Shown here one piece after another: positions 3,751 to 26,028 of a DNA stretch of 32,593 bases (position 1 is the stretch's first letter; each line of letters begins with the position of its first letter). The notes beneath the pieces were generated by a model. That model worked only from the letters and a program-made list of their open reading frames with translations, was not told the origin of the DNA and ran no database searches. Made by a program: the position numbers and the translations under genes. Origin of the DNA: Candidatus Rifleibacteriota bacterium (lineage in GTDB: Bacteria; Muiribacteriota; Ozemobacteria; Ozemobacterales; Ozemobacteraceae); the NCBI GenBank assembly GCA_012517355.1, contig JAAYVD010000152.1:1-32593 (forward strand), read 5' to 3'.

Positions 3751-3963
3751 GGCTCCCTCATGGGTTGGTACAGGATGTGGAACACCCGCTGCCGAGTACA
3801 GCAAACCCGTATCGGAGGTTCGACAGGGGATCGGAAGCGGCATCCGCCGGAGGCCCGGTTCATGGTCAGGAATGGCATGCCGCCCACGCCCCTCGCGTCG
3901 GCAAGGCCTTCCGGCCGCGACCGGCACGGGGCCTTCCGCCCGCCAGGCGATGCGCGGGCCACC

Positions 3964-7082: not shown

Positions 7083-7556
7083 ATGACCTGGTCTTCTTGG
7101 CTCCTCTTCCTGGTCGTGGTCATCGGCGTCTTTCTCGTCACCAGGCGGAAACAGGCCGGGTCTTCCGGCACAACCGATGCAGAGGAACATCCGCCAACGG
7201 CAGGAAACGGGGAAAGGTCCGAAGATCCGCCGGGGGATGATCCTGGCGCGGCGGCCCTCCCGGAAAAAGGGCCGGCGGAGCTTCAGCAGGAAGTCAAACA
7301 GAAGAAAAGCCTGGTGCTGATCATCAGGCTCCAGGTGAAAAGCCTGTTGTCGAAATGCCCTGAAGGGCGTGACGAGGTCGAGTCGGCCCGGCAGGTGTTC
7401 AAGCAGGCTTGCGAGAGCTTTGACATGCCGAAGCCTCCGCCGGCCGCGGACAGGGAAGAACTGGGCAAGGCGGTCGCCCTGCTCGACGCCCACATCAGGG
7501 AGTTGGACCGGCTCATCCACACGTTGCTCCGGCATCTCGACGGGAGAAAGCCCTGA
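7083..7556 (+). CDS. Small membrane-anchored protein of unknown function
   Basis: 157 residues. One N-terminal transmembrane helix (about residues 4-20, LLFLVVVIGVFLV) is followed by basic residues (RRK), predicting a cytoplasmic body. A low-complexity acidic/Pro/Gly linker spans about 25-62, then two amphipathic helices rich in Lys, Leu and Glu, the second ending in RELDRLIHTLLRHL. I do not recognise the family. The ribosome site is weak (AAGGA about 12 bases upstream). It lies 106 bases upstream of the ankyrin gene on the same strand and may share its transcript. Confidence 0.6.
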   Translation: MTWSSWLLFLVVVIGVFLVTRRKQAGSSGTTDAEEHPPTAGNGERSEDPPGDDPGAAALPEKGPAELQQEVKQKKSLVLIIRLQVKSLLSKCPEGRDEVESARQVFKQACESFDMPKPPPAADREELGKAVALLDAHIRELDRLIHTLLRHLDGRKP

Positions 7557-7662
7557 ATGGTCCTTCCAACCGCTCGGGGCCCTGATCTGCGCGAGTGAGG
7601 CCGGTTGCCTTTTTTCCCCACCTTTGGGAGGATGGCGCACCAGAGACGAAGGAGGGTTGGCC

Positions 7663-9264
7663 ATGGGCGATGCTCCGCGCACTTCCCACAAGGTCTGCCG
7701 ACCGAGGTTTTCCCCAGGGAGGGGGATGTTCGAGGCGATCCGGGCCGGCGATACCGAGCGCGTCAGGACGCTCCTCGCGGAAGGGATCGACCCGAACGGG
7801 CGGACCCGGGACCGGTTCGCCGTCGATTTCTCCCTCTGGCACGATCTTCTGCTCCGGGCCTGGGACCACGACATGGGGATCGGCCTTTACGAGTATTCCC
7901 ACTGGGGAGGCTTTTCCCCGCTCATGGCGGCCGCTTCCCATCGCCGGGACCCCATTGTCGATCTGCTCCTCGAGGCCGGCGCCGACCTCGCGGCGACCGA
8001 TTCCATCGGGCTGGGCGCCCTGATGTACGCCCTCGTCGCCAAGCGCGAAGCGGTCGCCCTCCGGTTCCTCGAACGGGGCGCCCCCGTCGCGGTGGCCACC
8101 CATGTCTCGAAGACCGAAGAACCGTCCTCGCGGGGAAACGAAAACACCGTGACCGGGCTGACCCCCCTGCACGTCGCCAGCCTCACGGGTTCCGCGGAAG
8201 TGATCCGCCAGTTGCTGGAGCGGGGGGCGGATCCCTCCGCCACGGATTCCCTCGGCCGGACCCCGATGCAGATGGTCTTGCAGAACCCCTCGCCAGAGGC
8301 ACGCGCCGTCCTCGTCGGACGGACCTCCGGCGCCGCCCTGCCCACCCTCGCACCGGGCGAGGCCCTCCGCCTCCTCGACCAGTACCTGGCCGGGGATGGC
8401 ACCCCCGAAGAGCGCATCCGGAGCCTGATCCCGCGAGTTCTCGCCGACGATTACTACGATGCCTATCACCGGGAGACGAATCTCGGGGGCAAACGGATGG
8501 AATTGTTCGAATACGCCTGCGCCCGCAGGCTCGGACGGGCCTTCCGTTTCCTGGTCGAAACCGGCCAGGTGCCCCTTCCCTCCTCCCCCCGCGATGAGAC
8601 GCCCTTCCAGACGGCCTGCCGGGCCCTGGCCTGGGACATCGCGGACTTCCTGCTGGAGCGGGGTTTCCGCCCCGGCCCGGCCGACCTGATGGACGCCCTT
8701 CCCAACCCGCCCCTCGTCGGGATCCTCCTGGAGCGGGGGGTCCCGGTCACCCCCTGCGAGCGGTACGGCCAGCCCCAGGATCCCGTTCGGGCCCTGTTGG
8801 AAGTGAAAGGCTCCGATCACGGGGTCATCACCGCCAACCAGGTGGCGGTGATCGATCTGTTGGCCGACCACGGGGCGCGGCTCGACCTTCCCGACCAGCA
8901 CGGGAACACCCCGCTGATCATCGCGGTCAAGCAGTGCGCGGCGGCGGTGGTGCAGGCCCTCGCCCGACGGGGAGCCCCGCTCGACGGGGCCAATGCCCGC
9001 GGCCAGACCGCGTTGATGACCGCCGCCTTCTACGGGCACGATGCCTCGGCCAAGGCGCTCATCGAGGCCGGCGCCCCCCTGGACCAGCGCAACCAGGTCG
9101 GCCAGACCGCCCTGTGGATGGCGGTCAACTACTCGCGCCCGGAACAGGTCCGGCTCCTTCTGCAGGCCGGGGCCGACCGGACGATCCCCGATGCCGCCGG
9201 CATCACCCCTCTCGCCCTGGCCCGCCAGAGGAAGCTGGCCCAGATCCTTCCCCTGTTGGGCTGA
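7663..9264 (+). CDS. Ankyrin-repeat protein
   Basis: 533 residues with no signal peptide. Clear repeats include GFSPLMAAAS...LLLEAGAD, GLTPLHVASLTG...LLERGADPSA, HGNTPLIIAV, GQTALMTAAFYGHD...EAGAPLDQ and GQTALWMAVNYS...LLQAGADRTI, with degenerate repeats between (about residues 215-400). The array occupies nearly the whole chain, so it is likely a cytoplasmic protein-binding scaffold with unknown partner. The ATG at 7663 was chosen over upstream frame extension because AAGGAGG sits seven bases before it and the first ankyrin-like helix (MFEAIRAGDTERVRTLLAEG) starts near residue 22. Confidence 0.88.
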   Translation: MGDAPRTSHKVCRPRFSPGRGMFEAIRAGDTERVRTLLAEGIDPNGRTRDRFAVDFSLWHDLLLRAWDHDMGIGLYEYSHWGGFSPLMAAASHRRDPIVDLLLEAGADLAATDSIGLGALMYALVAKREAVALRFLERGAPVAVATHVSKTEEPSSRGNENTVTGLTPLHVASLTGSAEVIRQLLERGADPSATDSLGRTPMQMVLQNPSPEARAVLVGRTSGAALPTLAPGEALRLLDQYLAGDGTPEERIRSLIPRVLADDYYDAYHRETNLGGKRMELFEYACARRLGRAFRFLVETGQVPLPSSPRDETPFQTACRALAWDIADFLLERGFRPGPADLMDALPNPPLVGILLERGVPVTPCERYGQPQDPVRALLEVKGSDHGVITANQVAVIDLLADHGARLDLPDQHGNTPLIIAVKQCAAAVVQALARRGAPLDGANARGQTALMTAAFYGHDASAKALIEAGAPLDQRNQVGQTALWMAVNYSRPEQVRLLLQAGADRTIPDAAGITPLALARQRKLAQILPLLG

Positions 9265-9435
9265 AGGACCCTCGCCTTCCGGGGTTCCGCTGATGGGCAC
9301 CCGGCGCCGCGATCGGGCGCTGCCCGGCGGGCCATCATCCAGGAGCCTGGGGCAGCCCCGATTCCTCGAACGGGAACGTGCCGGGAAGCCAGGGGCAGGG
9401 GAACCTGGTGCGGTCGGCCCGGGCGGCTCCAGCCG

Positions 9436-9834
9436 TCAGGCCATGTGCTCGGTCACCGAGTCGGGCAGCACGACCCAGGGCTGCCTGTGGTCCTCGTAGA
9501 CGGAAAACGACGGTGCGGGAAGATCACGGGTGTCGAAGGCGCCGAGGGGGACGATCACCGAATCCGGGAGATCGTCGATCTCCCAATACACGGTCGCGCC
9601 GCAGACCGGGCAGAAGAAGAAATGCACGTGATCTCCCTCGTCCGTCGGCCGGTCGAACCGGGTCGCCTTCCCCCGGATGGTGGTATTGGCCTTCACCAGC
9701 CGGGTCTGCACCCCGAAGGCGCTTCCCGTACGCTTCTGGCAGGCATGGCAGTGGCAGATCGAAGTCCTGCCGATGACCCCGTCATAGACCAGGGCGAGCT
9801 GGCCGCAGGAACAGGATGCTGTGGGCTTTTCCAT
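9436..9834 (-). CDS. GFA/CENP-V family zinc-binding protein
   Basis: 132 residues, the usual size for this family. The zinc ligands are all present: C8 and C10 in ASCSCGQL, C27/C29/C32 in CHCHACQKRTGSAFG, and C75/C78 in FFCPVCGATVYW. The family was named for glutathione-dependent formaldehyde-activating enzyme, but most bacterial members lack a proven reaction, so no substrate is assigned. The ATG at 9834 has GAGGG five bases upstream; the longer frame adds a Ser/Arg-rich stretch that is not family-like. It is convergent with the ankyrin gene. Confidence 0.9.
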   Translation of the reverse strand: MEKPTASCSCGQLALVYDGVIGRTSICHCHACQKRTGSAFGVQTRLVKANTTIRGKATRFDRPTDEGDHVHFFFCPVCGATVYWEIDDLPDSVIVPLGAFDTRDLPAPSFSVYEDHRQPWVVLPDSVTEHMA

Positions 9835-9937
9835 GATTCCCTCGTTTCTCCCTCCGGACCGCCGGCTCTTCTCGGACCGGGCGACTGGCTGCAGCAGGCC
9901 GAAGAGGATGCCCTCGGGGTTCTCCGCACCACCCCGC

Positions 9938-10651
9938 CTACGGCTCGTCGTGCTGGCGGACCGCGGACAGCCGGCCGCCGAAGGCCGCTGCCACCGCATC
10001 GACCACCTGGTGGTGGGTTGCCGAAAGCCCGGGTGTTTTCCCGAACTTCTGGTCGTCCTGCCAGAACACCTCCAGGAGCACCGCCTTTCCTGGCTGAACC
10101 TCCACGCGGGGGAACCGCTGGGTGCGAAAGGTCACGATGCTCTTCTTGGCAGCGCCAGGCACAGGGAATTTGCCCATCACCTGGATCTCCTGATTCCCCG
10201 CAGGCAAAGGGAACTCGCCATAGTATCGGGAAGTAACCACTCCCGGCCCGGTGGCGACGGGAACCTCCAGGCAGGCACGCCCGGGTGCCCCGACCTCGCC
10301 GGCGGTCGGGGGGCCCTCCTGCAGGGCCGCCACCCCGATCTTCTGGCTGATCCGCCCATTCATGACCAGGACCGCCACATCGATCTGGCCCGGCCCCCGC
10401 TCGGCCCCTTCCTTGGAAGCACAGACCACCAGAAGCCCCTTGCCTTCCCGGGCAAGGGCATCCAACCGCTCGGCGAGGTTGGAGGGGGGAACGCTGGCAG
10501 GGAGTGCAGAACCCGGGCCGGAGGCAACCTCGACGGCCGAAGAGGCCAGGGAAAGGGAAGTCCCATCGGATGCGGCCACCTCGGGCGGGGCGGCCCCCCA
10601 CACCCCGAGGGGCCAGAGAATGAGCACCACCAAAAGGCCTCGAACCAGCAT
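9938..10651 (-). CDS. Exported protein of unknown function
   Basis: 237 residues. An N-terminal signal peptide (LVRGLLVVLILWPLGVWGAA) is followed by a Ser/Ala/Pro-rich linker to about residue 60. The remainder has beta-rich text (DVAVLVMNGRISQKIG, YYGEFPLPAGNQEIQVMG, VEVQPGKAVLLEVFW), suggesting a small beta-sandwich that could bind the outer membrane or periplasmic ligands. I do not recognise the family. AGGAGGAA five bases before the ATG is a strong ribosome site. The gene lies 103 bases upstream of the GFA gene on the same strand. Confidence 0.75.
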   Translation of the reverse strand: MLVRGLLVVLILWPLGVWGAAPPEVAASDGTSLSLASSAVEVASGPGSALPASVPPSNLAERLDALAREGKGLLVVCASKEGAERGPGQIDVAVLVMNGRISQKIGVAALQEGPPTAGEVGAPGRACLEVPVATGPGVVTSRYYGEFPLPAGNQEIQVMGKFPVPGAAKKSIVTFRTQRFPRVEVQPGKAVLLEVFWQDDQKFGKTPGLSATHHQVVDAVAAAFGGRLSAVRQHDEP

Positions 10652-10910
10652 ACGTTCCTCCTGAAATTCCTCTTCCTCAAAGCCAGGCCAACCCTACCAC
10701 AAACTCCCGGCCAACTGAAGGAGGGCTTGCCCCGGTCGCGCCTGGAGAACCCGGATCGGCCGTTCGAGGTTGACGACGCGCTGCCTGCGTGGTGTCATAC
10801 GATATCTGCTGTCGTGGGTGGTGCCTGATGACTCTCTGCTCATCCACCCCCCTGATGGCCACCTCACCTTCCGAGATTCGAATGCACGGATGATAGGAGC
10901 CCTTTCCGCC

Positions 10911-11252
10911 ATGGCCACGATCACCCACCTCCCCCACTTCCTCACCGAAAAGGGCACCCTGCCCGCCGATCTTCCCGGACCCGCCCGCCGCCTCGTCACC
11001 TTCCTGGGCGAGATCGTCAAGGTGATCAGTGATGAGTATTCGCCGGATGAGATCATCCCGACCGGAATCCAGTGTCGCCGCCGCCCCCGGAGGAAACCCT
11101 GCACCGGCCGGATCAACGCGGCCATGCGTGAAGACAATGGTCAGATCGAGTGGCGCTGTCCAGTCTGTGGGGACAACGGTGTCATCACGGGGTGGGAGGA
11201 AACGATGTGGGACGTGTCGGGATTTCTTGGTGGTGACGCGGACATGAACTGA
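10911..11252 (+). CDS. Small zinc-ribbon protein of unknown function
   Basis: 113 residues. The C-terminal half carries a four-cysteine site: C55, C64, C83 and C86 within CRRRPRRKPC and WRCPVCGDNG, followed by GWEETMWD. This PC-G-I...IEW-CP-CG-NG arrangement recurs in small uncharacterised bacterial proteins I have seen described only as hypothetical. The N-terminal half is helical. The ATG at 10911 has AGGAG about ten bases upstream; an in-frame ATG at 10890 would add seven residues. It lies just outside the left end of the putative island. Confidence 0.6.
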   Translation: MATITHLPHFLTEKGTLPADLPGPARRLVTFLGEIVKVISDEYSPDEIIPTGIQCRRRPRRKPCTGRINAAMREDNGQIEWRCPVCGDNGVITGWEETMWDVSGFLGGDADMN

Positions 11253-11415
11253 CCGAGGCCCAAAACCGTCAAACCGGTTGCGGGCCCACCGGTGATGACA
11301 GAGCTGATCCAAGCCATGGAGGCCTTGCCCGAAAAGAGTAGCCTCACCGGGGTCTGGAAAATGAGGAGGACAGACTGTATGACAAGCAGAGCAGAATTGC
11401 GTAGACCAGGAGCAA

Positions 11416-11442
11416 GAAACCCCGCTCTGGAAGCGGGGTTTC
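11416..11442 (-). terminator. Perfect 10-bp hairpin beside the displaced tRNA end
   Basis: GAAACCCCGC (11416-11425) pairs with GCGGGGTTTC (11433-11442) across a 7-base loop. Read on the minus strand it follows the tRNA 3' fragment and a run of seven T, the usual place of a tRNA terminator. It is probably the original terminator of the tRNA-Ala gene, pushed away when the island inserted. Confidence 0.6.
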
Positions 11443-11451
11443 AGAAAAAAA

Positions 11452-11471
11452 TGGAGCTGATCGCTATCGAA
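11452..11471. repeat. attL candidate: displaced tRNA-Ala 3' end
   Basis: Reads TGGAGCTGATCGCTATCGAA on the plus strand, against TGGAGCTGATCGGGATCGAA inside the intact tRNA (26338-26357). The match covers the acceptor 3' strand, T-stem and T-loop. The upstream parts of a tRNA are absent, so this is a fragment and not a second tRNA gene. Confidence 0.6.
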
Positions 11472-11524
11472 TAGCGCCCCAAAAAAGGCTTCCACACAGG
11501 CGTTCTCACTGCGGGCTATCGGAA

Positions 11525-11546
11525 AGTATCCCCAAAAGTATCCCCA
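11525..11546. repeat. Doubled AGTATCCCCA repeat near attL
   Basis: AGTATCCCCA at 11525-11534 and again at 11537-11546. The core CCCCAAAAGTAT recurs near the right end at 26205-26216, and GGGGATAC (the same motif inverted) at 26173-26180. Position and repetition fit arm-type binding sites for a tyrosine integrase; that role is inference. Confidence 0.5.
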
Positions 11547-11703
11547 TATTACTTTCCCCCCCTGCTTTCGGCCGGAAGAACCTCCCGACTTTCCATGCGC
11601 GCCCCATCCCTGCATCTTTTCGGGCAGCCCTGACAACGGAGAGGCGGTGGACGGATCCGCCATTCGCGGATACGTTGAAGGAAAGACTTGTGGAGGGGTT
11701 GCC

Positions 11704-11961
11704 ATGGCCAAGGACACAGTTCCCGACAGCCGGAACTTCTGGAGGAACCGCCGGCGTTACCTCGAAAACCCCAGCCACCTCCACCCAAAGTTCGGGACGC
11801 CCTTGGAGGAGCCGTACCAGCGCTCAACAAAGTCCGTGACGGTAACAACCGGCGGGAAGAAGACCGCGATTCCAGCAAGAACTGGAGAGGATGGCCCGGG
11901 GGCGGCCCAAGAAACCCTCAGGTGGCCCGACGAAGACCAGCCCGACAAAGGGATGGCGTAA
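11704..11961 (+). CDS. Small hypothetical protein
   Basis: 85 residues (starts MAKDTVPDSRNFWRNRRRYL). Basic N-terminal half and acidic Pro-rich C-terminal end. GGAGGGG lies about eight bases before the ATG. It is the first of three short same-strand frames (11704, 11982, 12181) that may form a small transcript. No family recognised, and the C-terminal part is low in protein character, so a shorter or spurious gene is possible. Confidence 0.4.
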   Translation: MAKDTVPDSRNFWRNRRRYLENPSHLHPKFGTPLEEPYQRSTKSVTVTTGGKKTAIPARTGEDGPGAAQETLRWPDEDQPDKGMA

Positions 11962-11981
11962 ATCCCGAAAGGGGGAGACCC

Positions 11982-12176
11982 ATGTCCGAGGAATCCAGGC
12001 AGGCCATTCTGGAAAAGACCACGCCGGAAGAACGGGCGCAAATGCGGAAAGAACGCCAGGAAGAGATCAGGCGGGGCAACCTGGAGTGCGAGAAGGCGGT
12101 CAGGGAGGGCCGGGGACTGGTCTTCAAGAAGAATCCCCTGGTGCCCCTGGGACTGCCGGAGGACCGGAGACGGTAG
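11982..12176 (+). CDS. Small charged hypothetical protein
   Basis: 64 residues, mostly one charged helix (ILEKTTPEERAQMRKERQEE), then a basic tail. GGGGGAG is five to six bases before the ATG. It sits 20 bases downstream of the preceding small frame and four bases before the next. Unrecognised. Confidence 0.5.
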   Translation: MSEESRQAILEKTTPEERAQMRKERQEEIRRGNLECEKAVREGRGLVFKKNPLVPLGLPEDRRR

Positions 12177-12180
12177 AAGA

Positions 12181-12372
12181 ATGAGCACCGAAAGCGCCTT
12201 GAGGCGTCTGGGGTTGTGGCACCTTCGCGACAAGCCAGATCAGCTAAGCCTGATCATCCAGAAGCGGGTTCATGGGATCGAGATGCGCGAACTGGAAGCG
12301 GAACAACGCCGGCTGAAGCGGGTGTCGGAAATGACGAGGCGGCGGGCTACGACGACATCGAACGGAAAATAG
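12181..12372 (+). CDS. Small hypothetical protein
   Basis: 63 residues, helical and basic (RRLGLWHLRDKPDQLSL, then MRELEAEQRRLKRVSEM). The start is four bases after the previous stop, consistent with coupling; an A/G-rich stretch precedes it. No family recognised. Confidence 0.45.
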   Translation: MSTESALRRLGLWHLRDKPDQLSLIIQKRVHGIEMRELEAEQRRLKRVSEMTRRRATTTSNGK

Positions 12373-12429
12373 GAGCCTTCTCCCAAGCCGCACGAAAGTC
12401 AGCCCGGCCAAGGCCCTTCCACACCACAA

Positions 12430-12642
12430 CTATGTACCGGCGTTCTTCGCCCGGACCTTTTCGAGGAGTCCTCGTAAGGCGTCCATGTCGCTGGCCTCCA
12501 CGACCAGGCTGAATTCCTCTCCCGGCTCGTAGGCGGGGATGCCGTTGACCGTTGTTTGCTCCAAACCCTCATCCAGACAAGACAGGAGCGACTCCAGGGC
12601 CTCGCACTCGTGCCAGGACAACGTGATTCGTGGTGACCTCAT
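12430..12642 (-). CDS. Small hypothetical protein at the end of the Dnd-like operon
   Basis: 70 residues (RITLSWHECEALESLLSCL, then EEFSLVVEASDMDALRGLLE), an alpha/beta pattern without known motif. GGAGGAGG about eight bases before the ATG is a strong ribosome site. It lies 157 bases downstream of the 152-residue gene on the same strand, so it could be the last gene of the operon or independent. Confidence 0.55.
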   Translation of the reverse strand: MRSPRITLSWHECEALESLLSCLDEGLEQTTVNGIPAYEPGEEFSLVVEASDMDALRGLLEKVRAKNAGT

Positions 12643-12799
12643 TTCCGTCCTCCTCCCAGACTCGCTGGGGTTTGAATCTGCCTGGCCAGGCCCCCTGGCT
12701 CACCCCATGGTGAACCCATGGACCTTCGCCATGGGGATCCCGGCCGCCAGATCCTGCCGGGCCTCATCTCAACGAAAACTCGGGCAACCGGCATTCCCG

Positions 12800-13258
12800 T
12801 CAATGCAGCATTCCAGCTTCCCTCCCGGTCTCGAAAACCTCAGGGGGAATGATGGGCGAGACCGTCCGCAAGGGCCCCTCGACCAATCGTAGTTCCAGGA
12901 ACCTGGGCAGGGCCATGGTCCGGAACCTCTGCCAGATCTCAGGAACCTGCTCCTTCCCGACATGGAAGTCGAGTTGGGTGAGCCCGCCAAGGGCCTGTTG
13001 GACAGCCGGCAGGATGGGAAGATCCCCGAACAGATGGGGGCCGAAGGCCAGGCACGCATCCAGCAGGGCGGACGGGTCATTGGGGAAGGAGGGGATCACC
13101 GCCCGGATGTTCCCCAGGCGCTGGTCCCGGCCGTCCGGGTAGAGCGGCTCCAGCCACTGCCGGCCACCCGCGCCGGCCAACAGGATCAACGCGGGGGTCC
13201 CCAGGATCGGGGTCTCCAGGCCTTGGTACACCAGGAAGATCTTTTCCAACTCAGCCAT
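12800..13258 (-). CDS. Unknown protein of the DndD/DndE-HerA operon
   Basis: 152 residues, soluble, with alternating hydrophobic strands and helices (KIFLVYQGLETPILGTPALI, QLDFHVGKEQVPEIWQRF, FLELRLVEGPLRTVSPII). No signal peptide, membrane segment or catalytic motif visible. It follows the HerA-fusion gene by 57 bases on the same strand and so is likely cotranscribed and part of the same system. The ATG at 13258 is preferred; AAGGA lies about 13 bases upstream. A TTG at 13285 would add nine residues. Confidence 0.6.
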   Translation of the reverse strand: MAELEKIFLVYQGLETPILGTPALILLAGAGGRQWLEPLYPDGRDQRLGNIRAVIPSFPNDPSALLDACLAFGPHLFGDLPILPAVQQALGGLTQLDFHVGKEQVPEIWQRFRTMALPRFLELRLVEGPLRTVSPIIPPEVFETGREAGMLH

Positions 13259-13315
13259 GTCGTTCAGCCAATCCTTTCTGATCAATCATTCCATGGTCGC
13301 CGAGGAGCTCGCCGC

Positions 13316-14854
13316 TCACCTGCCCGGGCCCTTCCCGCCAGCTTCCTCTGCCAGTTGCCAGAACGGCAGGATCTTCAACCGGGAGTGGCGGTTGTTCTCT
13401 CCGGTCCGGAGGGTGGATACCACCTCATACTGCCTGAGGCCCACCACGACATCGGCCAACTGTTTGGCGGTCCGCTGGCTCTCGTGCAGGACGCCAGCCA
13501 GGCTCCGATTGGACGGGGGCTGCCCAAGGCGGAAGAGGAAGGCATTGCCGAGCAGTTCCTCGTATTCGGGCTGGCCCCGGAAATCTTCGGGGGACTGGGA
13601 CGCCAGCATGACGGCCACCCCCCGGGAGCGGCCTTCCCGCACCAGGGTCAACAGAGGCGGGCTTTTCCTCCGCAGGTAGTGGTGAGCCTCATCGATGGCC
13701 ACCACGCATCGGAGGGCCCGCCGCTCATCCTGGGCCTCGATCGGGGCGTCGGGCAGGCATGACACAGCCATCTGAAAGGCATGGAGGACCAGGAAGGCTA
13801 CCAGTTCGCGAACCGATTCCAGGCGTGAGAGGTCCAGGATGATCCGCTGCCCCAGGAGTTCCGAAGGCGAGAGGGTGGCCTTCTCGGCGAACAACTGGAG
13901 CGACGCCAGTTGCCGGACCAGGCCGGTGGCCGTGTCCTCCGACCGGCTGTTCTCTTCGTAGATTGCCTTCAGCCGGTCATGAAGGGCCGTGAAGGTCGGC
14001 TCGGCACCCGCATCCAACAAGTCGCGATAGGCATTGGCCAGGGCATTCTTCTGGACCTCGCCCAAACCCGGCCTGAACGACTTGAAGACCTCCGCGAAGG
14101 CCTCCGGTACCAACCGGGCGGGCACCCGTTCCGGAATGGCCAGGGGGTTCAGCGGGACGGGACATTCCTCCGGGCGGATGATCCGGGCCCCCGTGCGCTT
14201 GACGAACCTCTCGTCCTTGCCGAGGTCGCCCTTGTAATCGAGGGCCAGGAAGCCGGTTTCCGAACCCTGCACAGCGATCTGAGACAGTAGGGATTGCAGG
14301 AACTGGGTCTTGCCCATCCCCGGAACCCCCATGATGGCGGTGTTTCCATTGGTCTGATCACCGCCTTCCCGATTGAAGGCCCAGACGATGGGCCGCCCCT
14401 GGCCATCCGTCCCCACCCAGATGTCGATCGGAGTTACGGTAGCGCTTGCGAGAAGTCTCGCACTCTTCCCGAAACCCTCGATGGGGTCGAGGCGGCGCAG
14501 GGTCATCTCCCAGTCCTGGTGGCAGGCCTCGAAGGCGGCGGCCAGGCGTTCCATCCCGGCATTGATGGCCTTTCGGACGAACTCCATCAGGCCGCTTCCC
14601 TGCATGACCTGGTTGTTGAGCACGGAGATGACGCTCCGAAAGACTTCCCCATGGGTTCCGAAGTGGTCGATGTGCTCGTATTCGAAGGCCCGGCCGCCCT
14701 TGTCATCCGGCCTGGCCTGGAGGGTGCGAGGGTCCTCCTGGAGACCAAGGGCCAGGGCGATCCGCTCCAGCGCTTGGAAATCACAGCCGGACTTGTTGCG
14801 GAGGGTCTCCACCTGGGCTCGGCAGACCTTGCTGGTCAGTGATCGTTCCAACAT
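13316..14854 (-). CDS. DndE-like domain fused to HerA/DUF87 ATPase
   Basis: 512 residues. Residues 1-110 resemble DndE: a short basic helix with LTSKVCRAQVETLRNKSG, LERIALALGL, then FGTHGEVFRSVI and a FVRKAINAGMERL helix. From about 140 onward it is a HerA/FtsK-type motor: Walker A GVPGMGKT (176-183), an ALDYKGD strand (204-210), Walker B VVAIDEAHH (384-392) and sensor LASQSPEDF (417-425). HerA motors translocate on DNA, often with a nuclease partner; none is visible in this protein. The gene starts two bases after the dndD-like stop with GGAGG inside that gene, so the two are coupled. The HerA call is firm; the DndE part is by pattern. Confidence 0.75.
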   Translation of the reverse strand: MLERSLTSKVCRAQVETLRNKSGCDFQALERIALALGLQEDPRTLQARPDDKGGRAFEYEHIDHFGTHGEVFRSVISVLNNQVMQGSGLMEFVRKAINAGMERLAAAFEACHQDWEMTLRRLDPIEGFGKSARLLASATVTPIDIWVGTDGQGRPIVWAFNREGGDQTNGNTAIMGVPGMGKTQFLQSLLSQIAVQGSETGFLALDYKGDLGKDERFVKRTGARIIRPEECPVPLNPLAIPERVPARLVPEAFAEVFKSFRPGLGEVQKNALANAYRDLLDAGAEPTFTALHDRLKAIYEENSRSEDTATGLVRQLASLQLFAEKATLSPSELLGQRIILDLSRLESVRELVAFLVLHAFQMAVSCLPDAPIEAQDERRALRCVVAIDEAHHYLRRKSPPLLTLVREGRSRGVAVMLASQSPEDFRGQPEYEELLGNAFLFRLGQPPSNRSLAGVLHESQRTAKQLADVVVGLRQYEVVSTLRTGENNRHSRLKILPFWQLAEEAGGKGPGR

Positions 14855-14856
14855 CT

Positions 14857-16839
14857 TCAGGCCTCCTTCCTCATTTCCTGGAGGATGGTCTCCTCCTTGT
14901 CTTCCGTCGGCCGCTGCAGTTCGTACACTTGGTTGACATACGGGTCGAGGGCTCTCTCCCCGGAAGGGGAAAGCTCCCCGGTCTTGATCAGCAGGAGGAC
15001 CTGTTCCCCGAGTTGGGGAAGGAACTTCCCCAGGATGTTCTGGGTGTGCTCGTCATCCATAGGAGTCAGGGGGGCTTCGATGACCAGCGGGACCTTCCAG
15101 GTTGACGCTTCCTGCAATGCCCGCAGGACGCTGAAGGCCAGCACCGATTTTTCCCCGGTCGACAGCCGCTGCTTGGCCACCAGCTCGCCTCGGACGTTTT
15201 CCAGCTTGATGTCGAAGGTCTTCCGGTCCAACAGGATGCGACGATAGTAGCCGGGCTTGTTGGTGATAGCCAGGAGGGCACTGGTGGCGGCCTCCTCGAT
15301 GGCCTGCACCTTTCCGAGGCGTTGTTCCTGGGCCAGTTCGTCCACGCACTGGCGGATGCGCCCGATGAACTCGATCTTCCGGGTGGCCACCTCCGCCTCT
15401 TCGTTCTCCTGGATCGCCTGGTCGATCTCCTCCTCCTTGGCCTTCACCTGTGCCCGGAGGCGCTGGATCTCGGCCCGCTCCCGCTCAATCAGGGTAACGC
15501 GGTCGCTCCGGGAAGCCCCGAGGCCCTCGATGTCGGCCAGGACCTCGTTGATCCGACGCCCGAGGTTCTGGTCCTGGGTCAGGGTGGGGATCTCCCGCAG
15601 GATGCGGTTCCGTTCGTCCCGCAGGGCATCGCGTTCATCGAGGAGCTGGGCGAGGGCGGGCCCCTGCCCGGCCTTCTGGATGACCTCCCGCATCTTCCTG
15701 ATCTCCCGGGATGACAGGCACGGCGGGGTCGGTTCCTCCCCCTCAAAGACTTCGATCGCCAGGATCTTGAGCAGCCGCTGGAACAACACGTCCCGCCCCT
15801 GATCATCGAGAGGTCCCGACAAGGGGGGCCCTCCCCTGGCCAGGTCTTCGGCGATGGCCTGGGCAATCTCCCGGCGGCGCATGGCATCTTCCCGCCCTTC
15901 GAAGATGGAAGCCGCGTTCTCGGCCAGGTCGATGGCCCGCGGCAACAGGGGCCCAAGAAGGCGCAGGGGCAGATGCAGGTCGACGTGCTCCTGGAACAGG
16001 TCCCCGATCTTCTTCAACTCGAGCTCCACCTCGGCTTTGCGGCGCTCGAGCCCTTGCCGACGCTTGTCGAGTTCGGGATTGAAGTTCTTGAGGAGGGCGT
16101 CCTTGCGGGTCACCGCCTCGGCCAGTTCCCGGTCGATCTGGTCCCGCTCCTTGCGCAGGTTCGACAACCGGCTTTCGGCCGAGCGCAAGGCCCGTTCCAG
16201 GTCCGCGCGTTCCTGTTCCAGTTGGGCAGGTGGGGGTGAGTTGCTCTGGATCTGCCGGCGGATTTCCTTCAGACAAATCTCGAGGTCGTCCTGGAGCCGC
16301 CGGAACAGGTGCAAGCCGAGGATCTCCTCGAGGGCATCGACGACGGCGGCCCCTTCGTGGTCCTCGATCAGGCGTTCGAGGGTCTGGCTGTACTCCAGGT
16401 TGAACATGAAGTATTCGAGGAGTTCGAGGGGAAGGTGGTTCCCGAGATACTCCCGGATGCGATCCTCGTTCCCTTCCTGGGAACCGTCGGGACGGGTAAG
16501 GACATTGCTTCGCAGGAGGCGAGGCGGGTTTCCCTCGGGGGCGACGGTGAGGATCCGCTCGACGGCGCAGACCTCCCCGGGCCCAACCTGAAGTTCCACG
16601 CAGATCCGGGTCGGGCGGCCAAAGGCGGAGCCCCGGGAAAGGCTGATCAGGGACCGCGCCTCATCCTCATTGGCGGGAAACCCGTTGAAAGCGAGGTTGA
16701 AGGCATGCAGGAGGTTGCTCTTGCCGAACCCGTTCTTCCCCTTGATCAGGGTGATGGGCTGCCCGGGCCGGAAGGGCAGGAGCAGGTCGAGGTTGGGGAA
16801 CTGCCGGTAGTTTTCCAGGACCAGGCGACGGATGTTCAT
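14857..16839 (-). CDS. dndD: DndD-like SMC/Rad50-type ATPase
   Basis: 660 residues, the normal length of DndD. The N-terminal head has Walker A GKNGFGKS (34-41); long coiled coils span about 190-520; the C-terminal head has the ABC signature LSTGEK (559-564) and D-loop-like APLTPMDDEH (589-598). The Walker B aspartate position reads VIEAP rather than the family-typical VIDTP, a Glu in place of Asp. No CxxC zinc hook is present in the coil. DndD is the ATPase of DNA phosphorothioation systems, where it works with DndC and DndE. Here dndA, dndB and dndC are missing. The ATG overlaps the preceding small gene by four bases. Confidence 0.78.
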   Translation of the reverse strand: MNIRRLVLENYRQFPNLDLLLPFRPGQPITLIKGKNGFGKSNLLHAFNLAFNGFPANEDEARSLISLSRGSAFGRPTRICVELQVGPGEVCAVERILTVAPEGNPPRLLRSNVLTRPDGSQEGNEDRIREYLGNHLPLELLEYFMFNLEYSQTLERLIEDHEGAAVVDALEEILGLHLFRRLQDDLEICLKEIRRQIQSNSPPPAQLEQERADLERALRSAESRLSNLRKERDQIDRELAEAVTRKDALLKNFNPELDKRRQGLERRKAEVELELKKIGDLFQEHVDLHLPLRLLGPLLPRAIDLAENAASIFEGREDAMRRREIAQAIAEDLARGGPPLSGPLDDQGRDVLFQRLLKILAIEVFEGEEPTPPCLSSREIRKMREVIQKAGQGPALAQLLDERDALRDERNRILREIPTLTQDQNLGRRINEVLADIEGLGASRSDRVTLIERERAEIQRLRAQVKAKEEEIDQAIQENEEAEVATRKIEFIGRIRQCVDELAQEQRLGKVQAIEEAATSALLAITNKPGYYRRILLDRKTFDIKLENVRGELVAKQRLSTGEKSVLAFSVLRALQEASTWKVPLVIEAPLTPMDDEHTQNILGKFLPQLGEQVLLLIKTGELSPSGERALDPYVNQVYELQRPTEDKEETILQEMRKEA

Positions 16840-17033
16840 CGGGTCACCTCCTTGGCCATGGCCTCCTCGAGCAGGCGGCGGATCTCCTCGTGGAGACCGC
16901 GGCGCTTCTGATAAGAGCGGCCGAACCGGGCCTCGAGGTCCAGCAGCCTTTCCAGAAGAGTGAAAGGCACCCGATGGCGGGCACAGATTTCCCGCGTTTT
17001 CTCCGTGTCTTCAAGCAGTCTCGGTTCTGGCAT
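16836..17033 (-). CDS. Small protein of the Dnd-like operon
   Basis: 65 residues, a charged helical protein (TREICARHRVPFTLLERLLD, then FGRSYQKRRGLHEEIRRLLE). Similar short proteins occur beside DndD homologues and are annotated as DNA modification system-associated small proteins; my assignment rests on that resemblance and the position. First gene of the minus-strand operon: its start is about 55 bases downstream of the -24/-12 promoter, GGAGGG precedes the ATG, and its stop overlaps the dndD-like start (ATGA). Confidence 0.65.
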   Translation of the reverse strand: MPEPRLLEDTEKTREICARHRVPFTLLERLLDLEARFGRSYQKRRGLHEEIRRLLEEAMAKEVTR

Positions 17034-17087
17034 GCTTCCCTCCTTTGGGGCCCTTCGGCTCTTTGACCGTCGACCGGGTCCTCATTT

Positions 17088-17102
17088 GCAACCCTGATGC
17101 CA
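17088..17102 (-). promoter_or_regulatory. Sigma-54 (-24/-12) promoter of the Dnd-like operon
   Basis: On the minus strand the sequence is TGGCATCAGGGTTGC, matching the consensus TGGCAC-N5-TTGC with the invariant GG and GC correctly spaced. Predicted transcription start is near 17076, leaving about 43 bases before the first ATG at 17033. The neighbouring gene encodes a sigma-54 activator with an intact GAFTGA loop. Confidence 0.8.
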
Positions 17103-17140
17103 ACTCCTTGGAATCGGGCAAAGTCCCACGGAACCACCGT

Positions 17141-17162
17141 CAACGCATATCCCCCAACGCAT
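17141..17162. repeat. Direct repeat CAACGCAT x2
   Basis: CAACGCAT at 17141-17148 and 17155-17162, 14 bases apart, lie about 65-85 bases upstream of the predicted sigma-54 start. They may be part of the activator binding region. Confidence 0.4.
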
Positions 17163-17166
17163 CAGG

Positions 17167-17180
17167 CGGTTGCCCAACCG
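17167..17180. promoter_or_regulatory. Palindrome CGGTTG-CC-CAACCG, candidate activator site
   Basis: A perfect 6-2-6 inverted repeat about 90-105 bases upstream of the sigma-54 start, the usual range for an enhancer-binding activator site. It overlaps the -35 element of the activator's own promoter, so binding could both activate the operon and repress the regulator gene. Confidence 0.55.
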
Positions 17181-17198
17181 TAAATTTCCGTGTATCAT
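17170..17198 (+). promoter_or_regulatory. Sigma-70-type promoter of the activator gene
   Basis: TTGCCC (17170-17175) and TATCAT (17193-17198) are separated by 17 bases. The predicted start is near 17205, about 20 bases before the ATG at 17226, with AAGGGAAAAGG as ribosome site. Confidence 0.55.
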
Positions 17199-17225
17199 GA
17201 GAAAATTACTTCCTAAGGGAAAAGG

Positions 17226-18809
17226 ATGGCAAAACTGGAAACTTCGCGGCGGGTTCTATTCAGTTGGCTTGGGGAGGCGGAACTCCTGAGCAAGGACCTC
17301 GAGCAGTCGGGGATCGGGCGGGCGGTGCGGGCGAGGAAGTTCCACGAGGTGCATCTCCTGGCCAACGTGGACCCGGACCGCGAGGTGGTCAAGAACGGGG
17401 TGAGCCTGGGGAAGGTCTACTCGCGGCCGTTCTTCCAGAAGTACAAGGAGCGCCTGGAGGCCCTGAAGGCGGCCAAGGTTTTCATCCATGAGTGCACGCT
17501 CACCAGCCCGACCCACTTCTCCGAGATCTTCCCGATCGCCGCGGAGCAAGTCGGGAAAGTGCTTGCCGCCCGGCCGGGCCCCGTGGAACTGACCTACCAC
17601 CTCAGCTCGGGAACCGCCCCCATGATTGCCGTCTGGGTATTGATCGCCCAGACCCGTTACAAGGGGGAGCTCATCGAGACCCGCTTCCCCGAAAACGTCC
17701 GGCGGAAGAAGGAGAAGACCCTGGCGGTGGAGACCGTCGACATGCCGTTCGAGATCTCCGCCGACTTCCTGCCCGAGCTGATCCGGAAGACCGACCAGGC
17801 AATAGCCTCCCGCCCCCTGGAGACCCCGACCTTCGACGAGATCAAGCACCGCAGCCCGAAGACCCGGGAGGCCGTCCGGCTGGCCCACCTCGCCGCCCAG
17901 CGCGACGCCACCGTCCTGCTCCTCGGCGAGTCGGGGGTCGGGAAGGAACTGTTCGCCCGGGCCATTCAGGCCGCCAGTCCCCGACGCGACAAGGAAATGG
18001 TGGTCTTCAACTGCGGCGCCCTGCCCGAGAACCTGGTCGAGTCTGAACTGTTCGGGTTCCGGAAGGGGGCCTTCACGGGGGCGACCGCTGACAAGGTCGG
18101 CCTGTTCAGGGTCGCCGACGGCGGCACCATCTTCCTCGACGAGGTCGGCGAGCTGACCCTGCCGGCACAGACGCGCCTCCTGCGCGTGCTGCAGCAGGGG
18201 GAGATCCAGCCCGTGGGGGCCACGCGGATGGAACGGGTCAACGTCCGGATCATCGCTGCCACCAACCGCAACCTGCTCGACGAGGTCCGCAACGGGCGCT
18301 TCCGGGAAGATTTGTTCTTCCGCCTGGCCGTGATGGTCATCTCCATTCCCCCGCTCCGCGAGCGCGAAGAGGACGTCATCCCCATCACCGAGCACGTCTT
18401 CGCCAAGCTGGCCACCAAGTTCGGGATGACAAAGAAACACCTTGCCCCAGATGCGAAGAACGCCCTGCGAGCCCATCCCTGGCCCGGCAACGTCCGGGAA
18501 CTGGAGAATGTTCTGACCCGTGCCATGCTTTGGTCCGAACACGACCGGATCAGCGGCGAGGATCTTCGCCGGGCCATCCTCGTCTTCCCCGAGCAGGCCC
18601 GCAGTTCCGTTCTGGGTCGCCCCATCGATGGATCCTGGCGCCTGGAAGGTCTTCTGGACGAGGTCTCCCGCCACTACCTGGAGAGGGTCATGGAGCTGAC
18701 CCGAGGCAACAAGACGGAAGCCGCCTGCCTCCTGGGGTTCAACAACTACCAGACCCTGTCCAACTGGCTCCGCCGGCTGGGCCTGGAAGGGCCTCCCGAA
18801 GTTCCCTGA
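17226..18809 (+). CDS. RtcR-like CARF sigma-54 transcriptional activator
   Basis: 527 residues in three parts. Residues 1-185 form a CARF-like sensor (HLLANVD near 43-49; [20 protein letters not shown] near 124-143), as in RtcR, which senses nucleotide or RNA-end signals. Residues about 205-440 are the AAA+ sigma-54 activator: Walker A GESGVGKE (234-241), GAFTGA (281-286), Walker [10 protein letters not shown] (301-309). The C-terminal Fis-type helix-turn-helix is [18 protein letters not shown]. No rtcA or rtcB is nearby; instead a sigma-54 promoter drives the divergent Dnd-like operon, its most likely target. Domain calls are firm; the activating ligand is unknown. Confidence 0.9.
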
Positions 18810-22982: not shown

Positions 22983-23846
22983 TCAATTGGGCTTGGGCTT
23001 GGCCGGTCGCTTGTGCTCTCGTGGTTCGCCACCACGGGTTGGGCCACCTAAGGTCTCGAAGAACAACTTTTCATCGATAAGCGCGACATCTTTGCGGATA
23101 GCGGCATTGAGGAGCTCGTTGGCCAGGTTGGTCAAACTGCGAAAGTTGCCACCGGCGTGCTCTGCCAGGGCGCCGATGACGGCCTTCGTCATCAGCCCCT
23201 GATTGCCTGCGGCCTCCAGACAGTGACCGACAAACATGGTGAGCTGCTCCTTGGAAACAGCTTCCAGAGGCATGCGGAACCGGATCCGGCTTTCCAGAGG
23301 AAGAAGTTCTTCCGACCGCAGGCGGTTCAGAAGGCGGTCGTCCCCACACAGGACAACGGTCAGGATGGAGGAGGAATCGAACTGGGTGCTGGTCAGGAGG
23401 CGAAGCTCCGACAGCACGGCGTGATTGGCCAGTTGGGCCTCGTCATACAGGAGGATGGGCCGGGCCATGGCGGTTTCGATATGGGCCTGCCACCGTTCCC
23501 GCAAGGCCTTGAAGCCGCCATACCGGTTCGCCGGCGAGAGAGGCACCCCGAACAGATGGCCCAGCTCGCGGTAGAAATCGCCGACGACGCTCTGGGGCCT
23601 GGACAGCACACCGACCAGGACGTCGGACAGGTTGGTGAGGTGGTGGGCCAGCTGGCGCAGGAGAATGGATTTGCCGGTTCCCGGGTCCCCGGTGAGGAGG
23701 ATGAAGCCCCCCTCCTGCAGTTGTTGTTCGACCCGCCAGCAAAAGAGGTCGGTCTTGGGGGTCCTCATCAGGGCTTCCGGCGGAACGTCCGGCGAGAAGG
23801 GATTCCACTTGATCCCGAACTGGGTGAGGTCGCGCTTTCGCATCAT
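22983..23846 (-). CDS. ExeA/TniB-like AAA+ transposition ATPase
   Basis: 287 residues. Starts with FGIKWNPFSPDVPPEAL, typical of ExeA-like proteins, then Walker A GDPGTGKS (53-60), Walker B ILLYDEAQ (131-138), a sensor-1 strand TVVLCGDDRL and an arginine-finger region RLRSEELLPLESRIRFRM. In MuB/TnsC/TniB-type systems such ATPases choose target DNA and stimulate the transposase. The ATG (second of two tandem ATGs is possible) overlaps the transposase stop by four bases, indicating translational coupling. Confidence 0.88.
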   Translation of the reverse strand: MMRKRDLTQFGIKWNPFSPDVPPEALMRTPKTDLFCWRVEQQLQEGGFILLTGDPGTGKSILLRQLAHHLTNLSDVLVGVLSRPQSVVGDFYRELGHLFGVPLSPANRYGGFKALRERWQAHIETAMARPILLYDEAQLANHAVLSELRLLTSTQFDSSSILTVVLCGDDRLLNRLRSEELLPLESRIRFRMPLEAVSKEQLTMFVGHCLEAAGNQGLMTKAVIGALAEHAGGNFRSLTNLANELLNAAIRKDVALIDEKLFFETLGGPTRGGEPREHKRPAKPKPN

Positions 23847-25288
23847 TGCTCCTTTTCCTCTTTGGGAAGATAGCTCATTGGCTGGCCAGTGGCGGCGGAT
23901 TGCTCGAGGAGACGCCGCAGCAGGGGGGCCATTCCGGGAGAGGGTTTCTGACTGACCGGGGAATTCCCCGCCATCGGGCGTCGCCGGCCATCGGCGTTCT
24001 TTTCCAGGTCCCGTGGGTAGATCCGGCCGATGATCTCGCCGGTGGGGCGGCTGACGAGATGGACGAGGGACAGATCCCAGGTGGCATACCGGATGGCAAT
24101 CCGCGCCAGATGGCGGTAAGCCACCGGGATCTCGTAACGCCTGCCATCGATCGAGATGGTGCCATCGCTCCGGCGCTGGCTCCGGGTCGTCTCGATCGTG
24201 AAGGCCTGGCGCAGAGCCTCCGGTGGGGGGGCGGGACGGCCGACGCCCGGGCCATCGAGAAAGCGCTGGAGGGGGGTCTGGCCCGTTTCCGAATGGGTCT
24301 TGCGGTGATATTCCATCTCCACCCAGGCCAGGGTCGCGTCGTTCAGCTGCTTGAGGGTCAGTTGGTCCTCGCCCTCGAGCATCGCCATCAAGCGACCCTC
24401 GACCTGGCCCCAGAAGCACTCCTGCTTCCCGTTCTGCTGGGGCGAATAGGGAAGGGTCGTCTCGTGCAGGATGCCGATCCGCTGCAGCCCCTGGGTCGTT
24501 TCCGCCGCCCCCATGGGCGAGCCGTTGTCGGTCATCAGCGCCCGGGGCAGTCCCCGCTTGAGGAAGGCCTGAACGAGAGCATGCACGAAGTTTTCCGCCG
24601 TCTCCCGCCAGTACCATTGGGCATGGCAGACCAAGCGGGAGCGATCGTCCAGAATGGCGACCAGAACGGGCTTCACCCACTCTCCCTGCTCGTTGAGCAG
24701 TTTGCGGGAGCAATGATGAAAATCGGAATGGACCAGGCCCAGGACATGGGTCGCTTCGAACGACCGGGTTTCCCTGGCCTCGAGCCGGGAACGGGCGGCC
24801 TGGATGCCCGCCCGCTCGCCGTTCCGCGGGGTGGTGACTTTGACGAGCCCACCGGCATTTCGGAACCTCCGAACGGTGGCGTAGGAAGGGACCTTCCCCA
24901 AAGCCCGGTCCTGGGCGATCACGAGGAGATTGTCGTAGTGGAGTTGATGGGACCAGCCAGAATGGGTGGCATGCAGTTCTTTGATGGCCTGACGGAGAGA
25001 TTCCGGGAGTGAGGGGCGCTGGCCCCGGTCCCGCCGAGGTTTCCGGGTCAGAGCGCTGACCGGGCTGCCGCGGGTCCGCTTGGCCTGGTAATACCAGTCC
25101 TCGATCGTGGCGAAGGCAAACCGGGTTGGCTCCCCGGTGATCGGGTGGGTCCACTCGCGAGCGGCGAGTTCCTTCAAGGCTTCCTGGAGATGGCCGGAGG
25201 GAGGCGGCGAGGCAAGGAGATGGCCCACGACCTTGAGCCGGAAGATTCCCCAGGCCTCGTGGGGACGTGGATGGTCGGGATGGATCAT
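23843..25288 (-). CDS. DDE transposase (Mu/TniA-like)
   Basis: 481 residues. An N-terminal helical DNA-binding region is followed by the RNase H-fold core with D189 (VHSDFHH), D254 (LMTDNGSPM) and E290 (NGKQECFWGQVE), a DD35E spacing. The C-terminal region (about 350-420, ISIDGRRYEIPVAYRHLA and YPRDLEK) matches the Mu transposase C-terminal barrel. It cuts and joins transposon ends. The ATG at 25288 has AAGGAT eight bases upstream. The gene appears complete with all catalytic residues. Confidence 0.92.
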   Translation of the reverse strand: MIHPDHPRPHEAWGIFRLKVVGHLLASPPPSGHLQEALKELAAREWTHPITGEPTRFAFATIEDWYYQAKRTRGSPVSALTRKPRRDRGQRPSLPESLRQAIKELHATHSGWSHQLHYDNLLVIAQDRALGKVPSYATVRRFRNAGGLVKVTTPRNGERAGIQAARSRLEARETRSFEATHVLGLVHSDFHHCSRKLLNEQGEWVKPVLVAILDDRSRLVCHAQWYWRETAENFVHALVQAFLKRGLPRALMTDNGSPMGAAETTQGLQRIGILHETTLPYSPQQNGKQECFWGQVEGRLMAMLEGEDQLTLKQLNDATLAWVEMEYHRKTHSETGQTPLQRFLDGPGVGRPAPPPEALRQAFTIETTRSQRRSDGTISIDGRRYEIPVAYRHLARIAIRYATWDLSLVHLVSRPTGEIIGRIYPRDLEKNADGRRRPMAGNSPVSQKPSPGMAPLLRRLLEQSAATGQPMSYLPKEEKEQ

Positions 25289-25413
25289 GTGGTCTTATCC
25301 TTTTTGGTGATTTCTGGCGGTGGGTGCCACCGCCTCGATGCAAGATAGACCCGCATGAATTCAGGGGCGAGACGCATCCTCTGCGCGAAATGGTCAGCCC
25401 GACAACAGAGCGC

Positions 25414-25980
25414 TCAGCCGCTCCCACCCCCACCGGTCACCGGAAGAAGGTGCCGAAGCACCCCTAATGCTGTGTCCGTAAGGGTTTTCCGCCGAAACCC
25501 GTGAAGCAGGCGAAGAGGTATTGGCACGGCGGGCGCCCCGTCGAGACGAATCCCGGCGGAACATCCCAGCCAAACCTTGCTCTGGGAGAACACCTCTGCC
25601 CACCACGTTCGCCACCGGCCCAAGGTGCGGTCAGCAGCACCGCAGATTTCACCAAGCCGTTTCCGTCGACGAGGGGATGCATCGCCCACGAGCGCCGACA
25701 CCAGTATCAGGACGACGCCGACATACACCTTCCGCCCGAGGAACCGGAAGGAGGGTGGTGTGCGGCGCCGACGGCACAGATAGCAGCAGAAGCTGAACCG
25801 GCGGTCGATCCCTTCGTCAGGCTCAAGGCCCCACCCGCGGGGTTTTCGGGGATAGTGGGCCTGATGAAGAGGCCCATGGCAAATAGGGCATCCACCCTTC
25901 CGGGCTTCTTCGGCGAGATCCTCATCGAGGGAGAAAAGAAACTGGAAGAACTTCCAGTCGGACAGAAATCGCTGTAACAT
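25414..25980 (-). CDS. Zinc-ribbon accessory protein of the transposon
   Basis: 188 residues. The N-terminal part reads FFQFLFSLDEDLAEEARKGG, then CPICHGPLHQAHYPRKPRG and FSFCCYLCRRRRTPPSFRFL, giving two paired-cysteine sites (CPIC and CCYLC) as in a small zinc-binding domain. The C-terminal part is basic and helical (TLGRWRTWWAEVF), likely nucleic-acid binding. First gene of the transposon operon. The ATG at 25980 is preferred because AAGGAGG sits nine bases upstream; an ATG at 25989 is too close to it. I know of similar proteins beside ExeA-type transposases but no proven role. Confidence 0.75.
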   Translation of the reverse strand: MLQRFLSDWKFFQFLFSLDEDLAEEARKGGCPICHGPLHQAHYPRKPRGWGLEPDEGIDRRFSFCCYLCRRRRTPPSFRFLGRKVYVGVVLILVSALVGDASPRRRKRLGEICGAADRTLGRWRTWWAEVFSQSKVWLGCSAGIRLDGAPAVPIPLRLLHGFRRKTLTDTALGVLRHLLPVTGGGGSG

Positions 25981-26028
25981 GGGAACCATCCTCCTTTGCC
26001 GTGGGGTAGCAGCTACCGCAAAGAAGGA

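What the first reader, a model, noticed from the sequence alone, without database searches (positions are those of the whole stretch)
17088..17198. One palindrome may both activate the operon and repress its regulator
The 110-base region between the divergent genes holds a near-perfect sigma-54 promoter for the operon, a TTGCCC-N17-TATCAT promoter for the regulator, and a perfect CGGTTG-CC-CAACCG palindrome that overlaps the regulator -35 and lies in enhancer range of the sigma-54 start. Paired CAACGCAT repeats sit between. This layout predicts autorepression coupled to activation.
Basis: partly seen in the sequence, partly recalled or inferred. Interest (0 to 1): 0.68.

Follow-up and report, generated by a model that had tools for sequence, protein, structure and literature searches.

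The report
Sigma-54 switch for Dnd-like defence operon
A stress-sensing activator sits back to back with a Dnd-like defence operon that carries a convincing sigma-54 promoter, an arrangement known from other bacteria, but the short palindrome said to control both genes is no better than chance and is missing from the closest relative.

Summary
The motifs are at the stated coordinates, but they are unequal. The -24/-12 box (minus strand, 17087-17103) is the only exact TGGCAY-N5-TTGCW match in the window (0.03 expected). It lies 54 bases upstream of a three-gene operon: Sp-DndD, a DndD-like ATPase and a HerA-type ATPase. The regulator (17226-18809) is a CARF-AAA+-HTH sigma-54 activator of the RtcR_PspF2 family, and rpoN is in the genome. 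Ten of ten proteobacterial homologues have the same box just after their stop codon, before type I R-M genes. Seven other DndE-HerA modules have neither box nor regulator. The sigma-54 switch is therefore well supported and travels with the regulator.

The 'one palindrome' claim is not supported. A 6-bp-arm dyad like it occurs by chance in 5-17% of shuffles and 13-38% of real 111-bp windows. It is not enriched genome-wide. It is absent, with the CAACGCAT repeats, upstream of the 76%-identical regulator in G004, whose DNA-binding helix is nearly the same. Autorepression is plausible by analogy with PspF but unshown.

Overall: a new member of a known kind. The pairing with a DndE-HerA module, in a genome without detectable dndC, is the interesting part.

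The parts
17226..18809 (+). CARF-AAA+-HTH sigma-54 activator, RtcR_PspF2 family (527 aa), with GAFTGA loop
   Evidence: PADLOC PDLC01995 E 4e-159 over residues 9-521; Pfam Sigma54_activat E 8e-65 and HTH_8
17170..17198 (+). probable sigma-70-type promoter of the regulator: TTGCCC-N17-TATCAT
   Evidence: only promoter hit in 16800-17400; the region aligns with a similar GGTTGGCT...TATATT stretch upstream of the G004 orthologue
17167..17180 (.). CGGTTG-CC-CAACCG palindrome, candidate operator, unproven
   Evidence: present; chance level; not conserved in G004; not enriched in the genome
17141..17162 (+). CAACGCAT direct repeats, 14 bp apart, candidate half-sites, unproven
17087..17103 (-). -24/-12 sigma-54 promoter of the divergent operon; predicted start near 17076
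16836..17033 (-). Sp-DndD small protein (65 aa), first gene of the operon
   Evidence: PF20306 E 3e-6, 27.5 bits against cut-off 27.2; ORF
14857..16839 (-). DndD-like ABC/SMC-type ATPase (660 aa)
   Evidence: TIGR03185 206.6 bits (cut-off 245.85) over the full length; PADLOC DndD and PbeC models
13316..14854 (-). protein with a C-terminal HerA/FtsK-type ATPase like DndH/DptH; N-terminal part inferred to be DndE
   Evidence: PDB 7es4 DptH E 2e-19, residues 141-501; PADLOC DndH E 2e-31; architecture as in PMC10853773
12800..13285 (-). possible fourth operon gene, 161 aa, no family match
   Evidence: ORF; no hit

Best explanation
This is the control region of an inducible defence operon. The regulator is made at a low level from a sigma-70-type promoter and held inactive by its CARF domain. 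When a ligand is sensed, probably an RNA end or oligonucleotide produced during infection or RNA damage, it assembles as a hexamer on an enhancer between 17104 and 17200. By looping to RpoN-polymerase at 17087-17103 it switches on the divergent Sp-DndD / DndD-like / DndE-HerA operon. Because any enhancer there lies on or next to the regulator promoter, binding should also reduce the regulator's own transcription, as in PspF. Which bases form the enhancer is unknown: the palindrome is one candidate among several overlapping CAAC/GTTG half-sites. Shown here: the two promoter-like boxes, gene identities, rpoN in the genome, and the association of the box with the regulator family. Inferred: activation, enhancer position, autorepression, ligand.
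For: The -24/-12 box is exact and unique in the window and correctly placed before the operon. The regulator is a full-length RtcR_PspF2 bEBP. RpoN is encoded. In 10 of 10 proteobacterial homologues (about 44% identical) a TGGCAY-N5-TTGC box lies 4-16 nt after the regulator stop, before type I R-M genes (9 exact, 1 with one mismatch), while the same 175 kb holds only one other exact match. In G033 (same phylum), CARF-bEBPs beside cas6/cas10 and beside pglZ/brxL each have a one-mismatch box downstream. Seven other DndE-HerA-type modules have neither an RtcR homologue at the locus nor the box. The dual activation/autorepression layout is experimentally known for PspF (PMC3709507).
Against: No expression or binding data. 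The only close orthologue (G004, 76% identical) has no dnd operon or -24/-12 box beside it and shares no dyad with the window's region. In the proteobacterial homologues the target promoter lies downstream of the regulator, so overlap of enhancer and regulator promoter is not a family trait. No conserved enhancer was found in those homologues either.
Confidence: 0.66

Rival explanations
1. One reading: the CGGTTG-CC-CAACCG palindrome itself is the operator, and its occupancy both activates the operon and represses the regulator.
For: It overlaps the -35 hexamer (17170-17175) and is centred about 97 bp upstream of the predicted sigma-54 start, a normal enhancer distance. The PspF layout is a precedent.
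Against: Chance-level dyad; no genome enrichment, 39 places against 66 for the reversed control at <=1 mismatch; absent in G004 despite near-identical recognition helices; no matching dyad in nine proteobacterial upstream regions.
Confidence: 0.27
2. The enhancer consists of other half-sites in the block 17141-17180, such as the CAACGCAT repeats or the CAAC-N10-GTTG dyad 17155-17172. The perfect palindrome is a by-product of overlapping half-sites.
For: CAAC-type half-sites occur three times on the plus strand and once inverted within 40 bp. Several bEBPs use more than one enhancer site, e.g. three for NorR (PMC2941729).
Against: The 8-mer repeat is also chance level and is not shared with relatives.
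Confidence: 0.35
3. The regulator activates the sigma-54 operon but does not repress itself; the palindrome is noise.
For: Palindrome at chance level. In the proteobacterial homologues the target promoter is about 1.6 kb from the regulator promoter, so coupling is not needed for function.
Against: An enhancer between divergent genes this close is likely to interfere with the regulator promoter.
Confidence: 0.35
4. The -24/-12 match is fortuitous and the operon is read from an unrelated promoter.
For: No transcript data; two of 13 consensus positions differ.
Against: 0.03 matches expected in the whole window, correct position and orientation next to a sigma-54 activator gene, and the same pairing in the regulator's relatives.
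Confidence: 0.06

Closest known systems
PspF and the pspF-pspA intergenic region of E. coli
   Same: A bEBP gene with a sigma-70 promoter shares an enhancer region with a sigma-54 operon; binding there activates the operon and lowers the regulator's own transcription (PMC3709507).
   Different: PspF has no CARF domain and is controlled by PspA. The PspF enhancers and IHF role are established; here neither is.
RtcR and the rtcBA RNA-repair operon
   Same: CARF-AAA+-HTH bEBP encoded divergently from a sigma-54 operon (PMC7790460).
   Different: Window protein scores 305.6 bits against the RtcR cut-off of 650. The target is a Dnd-like module, not rtcBA.
RtcR_PspF-type CARF bEBPs next to restriction-modification systems and CoCoNuTs
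   Same: Same regulator family beside a defence operon; described for R-M systems in PMC4012209 and for CoCoNuTs in PMC11090510.
   Different: Here the partner is a DndE-HerA module; no paper pairing the two was found in the library.
DndE-HerA (clade-3 HerA/FtsK) modules of PMC10853773
   Same: DndD-related ATPase gene adjacent to a gene with DndE fused to a HerA/FtsK ATPase.
   Different: No dndC was detected in this genome, whereas the Methylorubrum and G587 modules carry dndC. The other modules lack a CARF bEBP and a sigma-54 box.

Membership tests
RtcR_PspF2 CARF-AAA+-HTH activators | full-length match to the family profile | tested here: met
   PDLC01995, residues 9-521 on profile 2-481, E 4e-159
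RtcR_PspF2 CARF-AAA+-HTH activators | sigma-54 interaction domain with GAFTGA loop, and HTH | tested here: met
   PF00158 and PF02954 matches; GAFTGA read in the translation
RtcR_PspF2 CARF-AAA+-HTH activators | sigma-54 promoter of an adjacent defence operon | tested here: met
   box in the window and in 10/10 proteobacterial homologues
RtcR proper (RNA repair) | NF038308 score above 650 and rtcBA neighbour | tested here: not met
   305.6 bits; neighbours are Dnd-like
cOA-binding CARF | K/R after strand 4 of the CARF domain | tested here: not met
   window protein reads HLSSGTAPM with Ala in the place taken to correspond (my reading); PMC4012209 says RtcR-type CARFs mostly lack this residue
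Dnd phosphorothioation system | DndC sulfurtransferase in the genome | tested here: not met
   no match to PDLC02662 in G000, 96% complete
Dnd phosphorothioation system | DndD equivalog | tested here: not met
   206.6 bits against cut-off 245.85, full length: a relative, below the equivalog threshold
DndE-HerA (clade-3) module | HerA/FtsK domain close to DptH, next to a DndD-like gene | tested here: met
   PDB 7es4 E 2e-19; gene order
DndE-HerA (clade-3) module | N-terminal ribbon-helix-helix DndE | tested here: inconclusive
   no profile hit; AlphaFold model unusable, pLDDT 37
PspF-type shared enhancer with autorepression | conserved enhancer dyad overlapping the regulator promoter | tested here: not met
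   palindrome not in G004 nor in nine proteobacterial regions
PspF-type shared enhancer with autorepression | regulator binding lowers its own transcription | not testable with these tools
   needs reporter or footprint

The most novel reading that the evidence does not exclude
A Dnd-like DNA-scanning module without a self-protecting modification enzyme is kept silent by transcriptional gating. A CARF bEBP turns it on only when an infection-derived nucleotide or RNA end appears, possibly a signal from the same genome's type III-A Csm complex. A sister module in the same genus (G001) sits between a CRISPR array and type III cas genes, which would make the DndE-HerA module a recurrent downstream arm of oligonucleotide-signalled immunity.
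Probability: 0.13. Interest if true: 0.66.

Novelty: new member of a known kind. Interest (0 to 1): 0.34.

Why it matters
If the sigma-54 switch is real, this DndE-HerA module is made on demand rather than constitutively. That would explain how a genome without detectable dndC can tolerate it, and would give a simple inducible handle for studying a poorly understood module. It also adds Dnd-like modules to the list of defence systems (type I R-M, BREX, type III CRISPR) that sit beside the same sensor family.

Tried and rejected
Single palindrome as conserved operator: rejected on chance statistics, genome count and relatives. Enhancer hidden in the regulator 3' end of proteobacterial homologues: synonymous-site scan showed no clear island. 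Shared dyad among window, G004 and nine homologues: none. Relatives through genome contigs: one distant hit; viral contigs: none; plasmids: distant only. First Cas10 profile gave only a weak hit in G000, but the ORF there scores E 4e-106 with another Cas10 model and has GGDD, so 'no type III system' was rejected. Makarova 2020 CARF classification is not held.

Full report
WHAT IS THERE. The window is contig C52 of a 7.1 Mb genome in 184 contigs. Its phylum is represented by only 40 held genomes. On the plus strand, 17226-18809 encodes a 527-residue protein that matches the RtcR_PspF2 CARF-AAA+-HTH profile over its whole length (E 4e-159), with a sigma-54 interaction domain and a Fis-type HTH. 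Facing away from it on the minus strand is a tight operon: a 65-residue Sp-DndD small protein (17033-16836), a DndD-like ATPase (16839-14857), and a protein whose C-terminal part is a HerA/FtsK ATPase close to DptH (14854-13316). The literature describes exactly such modules: a DndD-related ATPase gene next to DndE fused to HerA/FtsK (PMC10853773). I could not confirm the DndE half: no profile hit, and the structure model was too poor.

THE INTERGENIC REGION. The -24/-12 box TTGGCATCAGGGTTGCA (17103-17087, minus) has the invariant GG-N10-GC and is the only TGGCAY-N5-TTGCW in the window, where 0.03 are expected. It would place the start near 17076, 43 bases before the first ATG. The regulator's TTGCCC-N17-TATCAT is the only sigma-70-like hit in 600 bp. 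The palindrome and the CAACGCAT repeats are real strings, but of a kind expected by chance: in dinucleotide shuffles of the 111 bp, a 6-bp-arm dyad appears in 5% (spacer up to 2) or 17% (spacer up to 10), and an 8-mer repeat in 11%; in real 111-bp pieces of this window the figures are 13%, 38% and 23%. Across the whole genome the dyad with up to one mismatch is not enriched (39 places; 66 for the reversed control).

DOES THE SIGMA-54 BOX BELONG TO THE REGULATOR? This was the strongest test. Ten proteobacterial homologues (about 44% identical; nine full length, one cut by its contig end) all carry TGGCAY-N5-TTGC 4-16 bp after the regulator's stop codon (nine exact, one with a single mismatch), running into type I restriction genes; only one other exact match occurs in the same 175 kb. 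In G033 of the same phylum, two CARF bEBPs lie next to cas6/cas10 and next to pglZ/brxL, each with a one-mismatch box downstream. Conversely, DndE-HerA-type modules in G001 (same genus, 51% identical), G471, G477, G547, G587, G619 and Methylorubrum have no RtcR homologue at the locus; no sigma-54 box was found in the six distant loci or upstream of the G001 operon. The box therefore goes with the regulator, not with the operon. RpoN is encoded in the genome.

IS THE PALINDROME CONSERVED? The only close orthologue, in G004 (76% identical; recognition region [14 protein letters not shown] versus KNYQTLTNWLKRLG), has a similar regulator promoter stretch but no palindrome, no CAACGCAT repeats and no -24/-12 box; it has a HicAB-like pair next door instead of the dnd operon (read by eye). 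No inverted repeat of 4-5 bp arms is shared between window, G004 and nine proteobacterial regions.

MECHANISM. The layout is that of PspF, where binding to the enhancer activates the sigma-54 operon and lowers sigma-70 transcription of the regulator itself (PMC3709507), and of RtcR, also divergent from its operon (PMC7790460). By analogy I infer CARF-gated activation, an enhancer between 17104 and 17200, and probable autorepression. My estimates: operon activated by this regulator through sigma-54, about 0.85; enhancer in that stretch, about 0.7; autorepression, about 0.45; the palindrome itself as the key site, about 0.27. The ligand is unknown. The CARF domain reads SSGTA where classical CARFs carry a K/R, a lack noted for the RtcR family (PMC4012209), which argues for RNA ends rather than cyclic oligoadenylate. 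Yet the same genome has a type III-A Csm1/Cas10 with a GGDD cyclase motif and Csm3 and Cas6 nearby, so cyclic oligoadenylate is not excluded.

WHAT IS NEW. CARF bEBPs beside R-M systems and CoCoNuTs are published (PMC4012209; PMC11090510), DndE-HerA modules are published (PMC10853773), and the dual-role enhancer is established for PspF. The pairing of the two was not found in the searchable literature, and the genome lacks detectable dndC although two of the other modules have it. I class it as a new member of a known kind.

Noticed in passing
L046 (G001:C19:16000-33000), 3100-15800: In a same-genus genome the Sp-DndD / DndD-like / DndE-HerA operon (5212-8953) lies between a CRISPR array (about 3100-4600) and type III genes (Cas10, several Csm3-like, Csm2), with cas2 further upstream.
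   Followed up: partly
L039 (G033:C487) and L041 (G033:C231): Two CARF bEBPs in one genome: one directly upstream of cas6 and a Csm1/Cas10 gene, the other downstream of pglZ and brxL. Both have a one-mismatch -24/-12 box downstream of the regulator.
   Followed up: partly
L059 (G000:C65:1-8605): The window's own genome has a type III-A cluster fragment (Cas6, Csm1/Cas10 with GGDD, Csm3), so cyclic oligoadenylate could be made in this cell.
   Followed up: partly
L040 (G000:C142:12000-26000): A second CARF bEBP (about 40% identical to the window's) in the same genome; neighbours not resolved.
   Followed up: no
L027-L034, roughly 60-130 bp upstream of the regulator's conserved start region: Conserved GATGGTTGCGCCA-like element just upstream of a TTGACT-N17-CAAAAT promoter in several proteobacterial homologues; it could be their enhancer.
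   Followed up: partly
L003 1081-1299 and 637-1065 (minus strand): The closest regulator orthologue (G004) has a HicA/HicB-like toxin-antitoxin pair (by eye) in place of the dnd operon.
   Followed up: no
window 22983-25433 and 25414-25989 (minus strand): By eye, an ExeA/TniB-like P-loop ATPase behind a zinc-ribbon protein, perhaps a transposition module; the zinc-ribbon protein has no Pfam hit.
   Followed up: no
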